Below, piece by piece: positions 9,477 through 12,691 of a DNA stretch of 64,000 nt (position 1 is the first letter of the stretch; the number at the start of each line of letters is the position of its first letter). The notes under the pieces were generated by a model, which ran no database searches, had not been told where the DNA came from, and saw nothing but the letters and a program-made list of their open reading frames with translations. The DNA is from Bacillota bacterium (GTDB lineage: Bacteria > Bacillota > Proteinivoracia > UBA4975), in contig JAAYIH010000027.1 of assembly GCA_012523545.1 (NCBI GenBank), positions 1 through 64,000 on the forward strand, read 5' to 3'. Both the position numbers and the translations under genes were made by a program.

Positions 9477-10139
9477 CTATTCGCTCCAGCGGTAATAATC
9501 CGCTTGTCTGTCCGGGCGATGGGGAATGACGTCGCCGGGCTCCATGTTGCCCGGAACATACCGCAACTGGCTTATTACCCGGGTAACGCCCCGGACTTTG
9601 CGTGCGGCGGCAACGGCTGCCGCTTCCTGTTGCCGGTCGTATATTTCGCCGTTTAGAAACACGGCGCCGGCAACGCACTCCACGCCGATGCTCAAGCCGC
9701 GGAGATCGGGGTCGGCAGCCAGTTCCTCCCGGGTTTCCCAGGCAATTTGCTGGTCATTCACCTGCCCGTCGGTGCAAATGCTGGTGGCATCTACAAATTT
9801 GTGCACGCCGTGCCCGGCCAGAAGACGCTTGAGATATTCCTTTTCGGCCAGGGTATCGACGATGCCGGTAATCTGAAGGGCATTATTGACAAAACTGGCC
9901 TTGAGGCCGTAGCCGGACAGGTTTTTATCGGTGTCCAGACACCGCTGCAGTTCCCACAGGCGCCGGGGCACCTCTCCCCTGAGGGCGGTGTCGTGAACGG
10001 ACCCCGGATGCTCCTTGGTTCCGTCTTTAACGGCCATGGGCCATTTTACTCCCTTTTCATTGCCATGGGGGTGATTTTTCAACTGGGCCAATTGGGAACG
10101 GACCTCGCGCGGTGTGGGACGGCCTTTGGGTTTCGGCAC
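9477..10139 (-). CDS. BON-domain protein
   Basis: Cytoplasmic-looking protein with no signal peptide and two BON-like modules: about residues 55-115 (LSGYGLKASFVNNALQITGIVDT) and about 140-200 (LRGLSIGVECVAGAVFLNGEIYD...VRGVTRVIS). BON domains bind phospholipid or other ligands in osmotic and envelope-stress proteins; the ligand here is unknown. The start is chosen as GTG at 10139, because AAAGGAGG lies eight bases upstream; the longer ATG at 10175 has no such site. It is divergent from dinG and probably co-transcribed with the DUF1622 gene. Confidence 0.65.
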   Translation of the reverse strand: MPKPKGRPTPREVRSQLAQLKNHPHGNEKGVKWPMAVKDGTKEHPGSVHDTALRGEVPRRLWELQRCLDTDKNLSGYGLKASFVNNALQITGIVDTLAEKEYLKRLLAGHGVHKFVDATSICTDGQVNDQQIAWETREELAADPDLRGLSIGVECVAGAVFLNGEIYDRQQEAAAVAAARKVRGVTRVISQLRYVPGNMEPGDVIPHRPDRQADYYRWSE

Positions 10140-10207
10140 CGGCACCACCTCCTTTTCATAGTATGCCCGCGGCAATAATGCTATAATAACCAGCAGAGGT
10201 GGGGACT

Positions 10208-12691
10208 GTGCATGAGTGGTTTTCCCGGGAAATAGTGGACGAATTGCGCCGGGAGATTGCCGCGGCGGATAACAACGAAGTGTATTTTTGTGCCCGTCTG
10301 CAACAAGGCCGCCTGACAGGCCTGCATGTTCTTGCCCGGGGGAACAAAGAGTGCGTTCCGGCGCCTTTGCCCCCGGAAGGGGGCGGCGGCGTGGTGGTAA
10401 TTCACAATCACCCGTCGGGAGATTTGACTCCGTCGGGTGCTGACATTGCCGTTGCCGCGCGCCTGGCCCGGGAAGGATATGGTTTTGTCATTATCAACAA
10501 TGAGGCGACCAGGTATTACGTAGTGGTGGAACCCTGTGCTGTTTCCCCGCCGGTGCCGGTAGAACAGCACCAGATTGAAGAGATCCTGGCGCCCGGCGGA
10601 CTGGTCAACAGAGTAATGCCTGGCTTTGAAAACCGGCCCCAGCAGGTGGCAATGGCCGCCAGTGTGGGGCGCGCCCTCAACGATGGCCGCCACGCCCTGG
10701 CTGAGGCCGGGACGGGGACGGGCAAAAGCCTGGCTTATTTGGTGCCCCTCATCCTGTGGGCGCGGGCCAACAAAAAGCGGGGGGTTGTTTCCACCAACAC
10801 CATCAACCTTCAGGAACAATTGCTCTATAAGGACATTCCCCTGTTGCAAAAAGCAATTCCCGGGGGTTTTAAGGCTGTACTGGTCAAGGGCAGGTCCAAT
10901 TATCTCTGCCGCAGGAAGTTCAGGGACCTGATTCGCCATGGTGCAGACCTGGTGGACGAAAAGGACATCCCGGTGCTGCAGGATCTGGTGCAGTGGGAAC
11001 AGCAGACCGGGGACGGTTCCCGGTCAGATCTGCCTTTCGTGCCCAGGGGCGAACTGTGGGAATTGGTCTGTTCCGATGCCGACGCCTGCCTGCGGTTAAA
11101 TTGTCCCCATTTTCGGGACTGCTTTTTTCACAATGCCCGCCGGGAGGCCATCGATGCGCACATCTTAATCGCCAACCACAGCCTGCTCTTCGCCGATATC
11201 GCCTTGCGGAGCAAAGGGGCGGATACAGGCGTGTTGCCGGAGTACCATGCCATTGTCCTTGATGAAGCCCACAACATCGAACGCGTTGCTACTGATTACC
11301 TGGGAGCCAGAGTCACCAGGCTGGGGCTGATAAGGCTGTTGGGACGCCTGCGCTCGGCGCGGTACAATAAGGTCAAAGGGTTGTTGCCCTGGCTGGAACG
11401 GACCCTGGCCGCCAGCCTGAGCGGGGGCGACCAACAGGTGCAAGGGGTGCTGAAGGCAATTCAGCACAACCTGGTGCCCGAGCTGTTGCGGCTGGAAGAG
11501 GAAGTGAACGGCTTTTTCGCAGCCGCCGAAAACTTTCTGGCGCAAATGGGCGCTCAGGAAATAAAAGCGCGCCTGACTGCAGACCTTGTCTCTGCTCCGG
11601 GCTGGGCAACGGTGGCGCAAAAGGGCAAGGCGCTTTTAAGCCATTTGGAGGAAGCGGTCCGGCACTTGGGTGCTCTGTATCGAAGCCTGGAAGGGCTCGG
11701 ACCGCAAATATTTGAAGCGGTGCTGTCCCAGACTCTGGAGTTGGCGGCCATCGGCAAAAAATTGGCCGACCAACACACGGCTCTTAAAGAAATTCTCTTC
11801 GGCACCGATGCCGCCCTGGTTCGTTGGGCGGAACTGGATTCAAGCCGGACAGGGACGCAAGCGCAATTTAATTTTGCTCCTCTGGCGGTCGGCGCGGTGC
11901 TCAAGGAGAATGTGTGGCGGAAGTACAGTTCCGTCGTCCTTACTTCGGCAACCTTGACGGTGGCAGAAAGTTTTAAATATATGCGGGACAGGCTGGGTCT
12001 GGACGCCGACCTCAGCGTCCAGGAACTGCGCTACGGCTCTCCCTTTGACTACCAAAAGAACGCGGTGCTGGGCGTTGCCACCGACCTGCCCGACCCCGAG
12101 GAAAGGGCATTCCCGCAAGCACTGGCGCCGGCCATTCTGGCTTCCCTGACGGCATCCCGGGGCAGGGCACTGGTCCTGTTTACCTCCTTTTCCCTGCTCC
12201 GTGCCGTGGCCGACGCAATCAGAAACCAACTGGCAGCAGAGGCCATAACTTTGCTGTGCCAGGGAGAAATGCCCCGGCATTTGCTGCTGGACAAGTTCAA
12301 AGCCGATACGCGTTCGGTGTTGCTGGCCACGGCGTCCTTTTGGGAAGGCGTGGACGTGGCCGGAGAAAGCCTCAGCAGTTTAATCTTAACCAGGTTGCCC
12401 TTTACGGTTCCCGACGACCCGGTGGTTCAAGCCCGGATGGAGGACCTGCGCAGTCAAGGCAAAAACCCCTTTTACCACTACCAGCTTCCCCAGGCTGTAC
12501 TGCGCTTTAAACAAGGATTTGGCCGTCTGATCCGGAGCAAACAGGACAAAGGCGCAGTTCTGGTGCTGGACAAGCGCATTGTCACCAGGTCTTACGGGCG
12601 CTGGTTCTTGAAAGCGCTGCCCCCTTGTCCTGCCAGGTGCGGGCCGCTGGCGGAAATACTGGCATGGCAGGCCGAGTTTCTCAACCAATAA
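10208..12691 (+). CDS. dinG: DinG/XPD-family helicase with an N-terminal RadC-like JAMM domain
   Basis: An 827-residue fusion. Residues 1-110 form a JAB/MPN domain with a complete JAMM motif: HNH at 66-68, Ser76, Asp79 and a possible Glu24. From about residue 130 onward is a superfamily 2 iron-sulfur helicase: Walker A AGTGTGKS, motif Ia, four Cys around CSDADAC...LNC...DC for the 4Fe-4S cluster, the DEAH box, and C-terminal motifs up to QGFGRLIRS. DinG helicases unwind DNA and R-loops; RadC-like JAMM domains occur in repair and mobile-element contexts. GTG 10208 lies eight bases after AGAGG. A TATAAT lies at 10182 without a good -35 box; no LexA box seen. Confidence 0.9.
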   Translation: MHEWFSREIVDELRREIAAADNNEVYFCARLQQGRLTGLHVLARGNKECVPAPLPPEGGGGVVVIHNHPSGDLTPSGADIAVAARLAREGYGFVIINNEATRYYVVVEPCAVSPPVPVEQHQIEEILAPGGLVNRVMPGFENRPQQVAMAASVGRALNDGRHALAEAGTGTGKSLAYLVPLILWARANKKRGVVSTNTINLQEQLLYKDIPLLQKAIPGGFKAVLVKGRSNYLCRRKFRDLIRHGADLVDEKDIPVLQDLVQWEQQTGDGSRSDLPFVPRGELWELVCSDADACLRLNCPHFRDCFFHNARREAIDAHILIANHSLLFADIALRSKGADTGVLPEYHAIVLDEAHNIERVATDYLGARVTRLGLIRLLGRLRSARYNKVKGLLPWLERTLAASLSGGDQQVQGVLKAIQHNLVPELLRLEEEVNGFFAAAENFLAQMGAQEIKARLTADLVSAPGWATVAQKGKALLSHLEEAVRHLGALYRSLEGLGPQIFEAVLSQTLELAAIGKKLADQHTALKEILFGTDAALVRWAELDSSRTGTQAQFNFAPLAVGAVLKENVWRKYSSVVLTSATLTVAESFKYMRDRLGLDADLSVQELRYGSPFDYQKNAVLGVATDLPDPEERAFPQALAPAILASLTASRGRALVLFTSFSLLRAVADAIRNQLAAEAITLLCQGEMPRHLLLDKFKADTRSVLLATASFWEGVDVAGESLSSLILTRLPFTVPDDPVVQARMEDLRSQGKNPFYHYQLPQAVLRFKQGFGRLIRSKQDKGAVLVLDKRIVTRSYGRWFLKALPPCPARCGPLAEILAWQAEFLNQ

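What the first reader, a model, noticed from the sequence alone, without database searches (positions are those of the whole stretch)
10208..12691. RadC-like JAMM domain fused to a DinG-type Fe-S helicase
The N-terminal HxH-x7-S-x2-D motif is complete, so a zinc metalloenzyme or a metal-supported binding module is attached to an XPD-like helicase that also keeps its four Cys. RadC's own function is unclear, so this fusion gives a rare functional hint: the JAMM domain works on the same DNA/RNA substrate or on a protein tag at it.
Basis: partly seen in the sequence, partly recalled or inferred. Interest (0 to 1): 0.58.

Follow-up and report, generated by a model that had tools for sequence, protein, structure and literature searches.

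The report
RadC-like JAMM domain on DinG helicase
This gene encodes a DNA-unwinding enzyme with a small zinc-enzyme-like domain at its front; the pairing is real, old and widespread, but it was already described in the literature as 'RadC-like DinG', and nobody has yet shown what the front domain does.

Summary
The + strand gene 10208-12691 (827 aa) joins a JAMM (RadC-like) domain, residues ~7-107, to a complete Fe-S DinG/YoaA-type helicase, residues ~132-826. E24, H66 and H68 are each kept in 63 of 64 homologues, S76 and D79 in all 64. AlphaFold models are confident and match RadC/JAMM and DinG structures. The fusion occurs in all 13 sampled genomes of the class, in 36 of 399 sampled from the phylum, and in about eight phyla. 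Outside contig ends it was always fused, while a separate, ordinary radC sits elsewhere in the genome. It is not new: the architecture was noted by Aravind's group (2017, citing earlier work) and named 'RadC-like DinG' in a 2025 review. The best-supported mechanism is a 5'-3' translocase whose JAMM module hydrolyses the substrate the motor delivers. The bond cut is unknown: nucleic acid is favoured, a DNA-bound protein adduct is a live rival. Support is by analogy with S. aureus exonuclease-DinG, where both activities are needed for crosslink resistance. The 'rare hint' reading is weakened: the fusion is common and the inference is published.

The parts
10196..10204 (+). Ribosome-binding site (GAGGTGGGG) for the GTG start at 10208
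   Evidence: read from the sequence
10208..12691 (+). Whole gene, 827 aa: RadC-like JAMM domain + DinG/YoaA-type Fe-S helicase
10226..10528 (+). RadC-like JAMM domain, residues 7-107 of the protein
   Evidence: Pfam RadC; AlphaFold pLDDT 93.3; Foldseek to RadC 2qlc and JAMM 1oi0
10277..10279 (+). E24, predicted catalytic glutamate
   Evidence: 63/64 homologues; aligned with invariant RadC Glu
10337..10339 (+). R44, near-invariant Arg specific to this fused subfamily, predicted near the active-site end of the beta hairpin
   Evidence: 61/64; the aligned RadC position is variable; closeness to E24 is inferred from the strand pairing
10403..10444 (+). H66-N-H68-P-S-G-D-x3-S76-x2-D79 metal motif
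10601..12685 (+). DinG/YoaA-type helicase, residues 132-826
   Evidence: NCBIfam YoaA 595 bits, DinG 535 bits; Foldseek to DinG 6fwr E=2e-45
10709..10729 (+). Walker A GTGTGKS (residues 168-174)
   Evidence: K173 invariant
10907..10909 (+). C234, first Fe-S ligand
   Evidence: 35/37
11087..11122 (+). C294-x4-C299-x5-C305, remaining Fe-S ligands
   Evidence: 31/37, 37/37, 37/37; align with E. coli DinG and YoaA Cys
11261..11272 (+). DEAH box (residues 352-355)
   Evidence: D352 and E353 invariant
12512..12535 (+). Helicase motif VI QGFGRLIR (residues 769-776)

Best explanation
The gene encodes a RadC-like DinG. The Fe-S helicase loads on single-stranded DNA at a lesion or stalled fork and moves 5' to 3'. 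The N-terminal JAMM domain is a metal-dependent hydrolase that processes the substrate the motor brings to it, most likely nucleic acid at a crosslink or flap. It stands where the DnaQ exonuclease stands in exonuclease-DinG. Shown here: the fusion, the intact motifs of both halves, the JAMM fold (predicted), and strict conservation. Inferred from family knowledge: helicase polarity and the Fe-S cluster. Inferred only: metal binding, catalysis, nucleic acid as substrate, and a role in crosslink repair.
For: All five JAMM-type residues (E24, H66, H68, S76, D79) are conserved in 63-64 of 64 homologues across several phyla, beyond what a mere structural module needs. The model fold is JAMM/RadC and the helicase is complete. 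The JAMM subfamily occurs only fused in the phylum: matches with E<1e-38 all lie in 813-942 aa frames except one at a contig end. In 150 genomes searched for both, 13 have this fusion and 38 have exonuclease-DinG, with no overlap (hypergeometric p=0.019, ignoring kinship), which fits one slot filled by alternative N-terminal modules. In S. aureus exonuclease-DinG both nuclease and helicase are needed for mitomycin C and formaldehyde resistance (PMC12345164). Aravind and colleagues argued nuclease from the same positional equivalence (PMC5512222).
Against: No RadC or JAMM domain has been shown to cut nucleic acid in any paper found here. The 2025 review's DALI search found metalloproteases, not nucleases (PMC11981726), and the Foldseek search here gives the same picture. 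One relative (G007/L186) keeps the helicase with a dead JAMM site. No LexA box and no conserved neighbours tie it to damage response.
Confidence: 0.45

Rival explanations
1. The JAMM domain is a metalloprotease that cuts protein adducts which the helicase runs into and unfolds on DNA, a one-chain counterpart of the human FANCJ (Fe-S helicase) plus SPRTN (metalloprotease) pair.
For: The site keeps all peptidase-type JAMM residues including the oxyanion Ser. Closest solved folds are JAMM peptidases and RadC. FANCJ translocates into a crosslinked protein and unfolds it so that SPRTN can cut it (PMC12279946). S. aureus DinG is needed for formaldehyde resistance, a DNA-protein crosslinker (PMC12345164).
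Against: No RadC-type domain has a shown protease activity in the papers found. RadC-type JAMMs are said to lack the groove for the ubiquitin tail (PMC5512222). Known JAMMs are mostly specific isopeptidases, not general proteases (general knowledge).
Confidence: 0.22
2. The JAMM domain no longer catalyses; it is a metal-stabilised binding or regulatory module that positions the helicase.
For: A relative of the same family has lost E24, H66 and H68 yet keeps a helicase 59% identical over its length, so the domain can persist without the site.
Against: 63 of 64 homologues keep every catalytic-type residue.
Confidence: 0.22
3. The JAMM domain removes a ubiquitin-like tag from proteins at DNA, as the reader suggested as one option.
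For: Fold and motif match JAMM deubiquitinases. The genome has one ThiF-type E1 and one ThiS-type protein, adjacent.
Against: The genome has no JAMM over the Prok-JAB cut-off; only this protein and ordinary RadC come near. The ThiF/ThiS pair looks like ordinary cofactor sulfur transfer and lies on another contig. RadC-type JAMMs are reported to lack the ubiquitin-tail groove (PMC5512222).
Confidence: 0.06

Closest known systems
RadC-like DinG (subgroup named in PMC11981726, 2025; example Desulfuromonas soudanensis)
   Same: N-terminal RadC-like domain with conserved E, two H and D; YoaA-like Fe-S helicase; relatives found here in the same Desulfuromonadales lineage
   Different: No difference in kind; this one is from a genome on the Bacillota side and shares about 40% identity with the Geobacter-type members
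RadC (PF04002), standalone
   Same: Glu, HNHPSGD, PS-x2-D motif; fold; profile match over residues 22-90
   Different: Lacks the near-invariant C-terminal D-H...G stretch of RadC (LDHIIIG) and the VHPRE segment; is fused to a helicase; carries subfamily-specific R44
Exonuclease-DinG (ExoDinG, e.g. Staphylococcus aureus DinG)
   Same: N-terminal putative hydrolase module followed by a DinG helicase; apparently mutually exclusive genomic distribution
   Different: JAMM instead of DnaQ exonuclease; keeps the four Fe-S Cys, which S. aureus DinG lacks
YoaA (E. coli)
   Same: Helicase half scores best against YoaA (595 bits, below its curated cut-off of 680)
   Different: YoaA has no JAMM domain

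Membership tests
RadC-like DinG | N-terminal RadC-like domain fused to DinG-like helicase | tested here: met
RadC-like DinG | Conserved E, two H and D in the RadC-like domain | tested here: met
   E24, H66, H68, D79; 63-64 of 64
RadC-like DinG | Four Fe-S cysteines | tested here: met
   C234, C294, C299, C305
RadC-like DinG | Host lacks HolC | not tested
   stated in PMC11981726; not searched in this genome
RadC (PF04002) | E plus HNHPSGDxxPSxxD | tested here: met
   Pfam 28.4 bits over cut-off 22.1, but only 28 of 121 positions
RadC (PF04002) | C-terminal D-H...G (LDHIIIG) stretch | tested here: not met
   near-invariant D109, H110, G114 in RadC; the fused domain has INN/VDN instead
DinG/XPD helicase | Walker A, DEAH, motif VI, Fe-S cluster cysteines | tested here: met
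   fold to 6fwr
DinG/XPD helicase | ATP-dependent 5'-3' unwinding | not testable with these tools
   needs purified protein
JAMM/MPN+ metallopeptidase | E...HxH-x7-S-x2-D and JAMM fold | tested here: met
JAMM/MPN+ metallopeptidase | Zn binding and peptide-bond cleavage | not testable with these tools
   needs purified protein
SOS-regulated DinG | LexA box upstream | tested here: not met
   no box matching the patterns tried within 250 bases upstream of this gene; 2 weak hits among about 60 loci

The most novel reading that the evidence does not exclude
The protein is a single-chain DNA-protein-crosslink repair machine of bacteria: the Fe-S helicase runs along ssDNA into the adduct and unfolds it, and the JAMM domain proteolyses it, doing in one polypeptide what FANCJ and SPRTN do together in human cells. 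This would also give RadC-type JAMM domains their first biochemical activity.
Probability: 0.15. Interest if true: 0.8.

Novelty: new member of a known kind. Interest (0 to 1): 0.25.

Why it matters
RadC is widespread in bacteria and has no agreed function. A version that is always tied to a DNA helicase, with its site kept across several phyla, restricts the possibilities to something done at DNA and makes them testable with one purified enzyme. That argument is published, but no experiment has been reported in the papers found.

Tried and rejected
E48 as the JAMM glutamate: not conserved (5 of 64), rejected in favour of E24. LexA/SOS control: no box. Operon or neighbour clues: clustering neighbours of 41 loci gave no gene family shared beyond the Geobacter-type group, apart from two clusters also seen in one or two Halanaerobiales loci; in the window the gene is flanked by genes on the opposite strand. 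Anti-phage filing: PADLOC hits are only the generic type IV CRISPR DinG helicase models; no CRISPR context was looked for specifically. A longer N-terminal extension in L049 looks like an unbroken high-GC frame, not a domain (not scanned against Pfam). The tree does not resolve whether the fusion arose once: JAMM rows need 3 changes, and one clade is not rejected (p-AU 0.287).

Full report
WHAT IS THERE. The + strand frame 10208-12691 encodes 827 aa, with GAGGTGGGG just upstream of the GTG start. Pfam finds RadC-like JAB (28.4 bits, cut-off 22.1) and Helicase_C_2 (164.8 bits), with DEAD/DEAD_2 between. NCBIfam places the helicase closest to YoaA (595 bits, under its cut-off of 680) and DinG (535 bits). 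The domain alone, and all 34 aligned relatives, hit RadC. Walker A, DEAH, motif VI and the four Fe-S cysteines are present.

CONSERVATION. Across 64 fused homologues E24 is kept in 63, H66 and H68 in 63, S76 and D79 in 64, and R44 in 61. R44 is variable at the aligned place in standalone RadC. The one exception is G007 (locus L095/L186), a relative in the same family, which has lost E24, H66, H68 and the R44 loop but keeps an intact helicase 59% identical to this one.

STRUCTURE. AlphaFold gives the domain pLDDT 93.3 and the whole protein 89.6. Foldseek on the domain returns JAMM AF2198 (1oi0), BubCD (9ea4) and RadC (2qlc), then JAMM deubiquitinases; TM-scores are near 0.5-0.6, a fold-level match. 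The whole protein matches E. coli DinG (6fwr, E=2e-45), S. aureus DinG and XPD. Profile comparison with RadC aligns residues 22-90 with E24 opposite the invariant RadC Glu (E=6.5e-19). The RadC C-terminal D-H...G stretch is absent, so this is a RadC-like subfamily, not RadC itself.

DISTRIBUTION. All 13 genomes of the class carry the fusion plus a separate radC-type hit. In 399 genomes of the phylum there are 34 strong matches plus one contig-end fragment and the degenerate G007 copy; strong matches lie in frames of 813-942 aa except one cut by a contig end. Named relatives come from Bacillota, Thermodesulfobacteriota, Myxococcota-labelled bins, Planctomycetota, Gemmatimonadota, Calditrichota, Hydrogenedentota and Spirochaetota. 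Phylum labels of metagenome bins come from record titles and may be wrong. No standalone copy of this subfamily was seen. In 150 genomes searched for both architectures, 13 have this fusion, 38 have exonuclease-DinG and none has both (p=0.019, not corrected for kinship). On the helicase tree the fused proteins cluster far beyond chance (3 changes against 27 shuffled) and one origin is not rejected.

MECHANISM. The N-terminal slot of DinG holds alternative modules: DnaQ exonuclease in many genomes of the phylum, JAMM here. In S. aureus exonuclease-DinG both activities are needed for mitomycin C and formaldehyde resistance (PMC12345164). I therefore favour a coupled motor-hydrolase acting at DNA lesions. 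The substrate of the JAMM site is not settled. The nuclease reading rests on positional equivalence and prior argument (PMC5512222). The protease reading rests on the site and fold and on the FANCJ-SPRTN parallel (PMC12279946). A ubiquitin-like tag is least likely: no other JAMM passes the Prok-JAB cut-off in this genome and its only ThiF/ThiS pair is adjacent on another contig. No LexA box or conserved neighbour adds to this.

NOVELTY. The fusion was noted in 2017 with reference to earlier work (PMC5512222) and named RadC-like DinG in 2025, where it is stated that no research had been done on it (PMC11981726). These are increments on a known kind.

Noticed in passing
L186 (G007:C34:48500-51800), also L095: A close relative keeps the DinG helicase but has lost E24, H66 and H68 of the JAMM site (VVIALNPGEALLPSGTD): a natural site-dead control.
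   Followed up: partly
L012:4941-7405: In a Geobacteraceae bin the same fusion is split into two overlapping frames (467 and 357 aa), a frameshift or assembly error.
   Followed up: no
L173 and L185 (family code f52): Standalone DinG proteins that group weakly with a fused one (L039); possible secondary loss of the JAMM domain.
   Followed up: partly
G000 contig C43, 795-1717: The only ThiF-type E1 and the only ThiS-type protein of this genome lie next to each other on opposite strands.
   Followed up: no
window 9477-10175, - strand: BON-domain protein transcribed away from this gene, its frame starting about 33 bases upstream of it.
   Followed up: no
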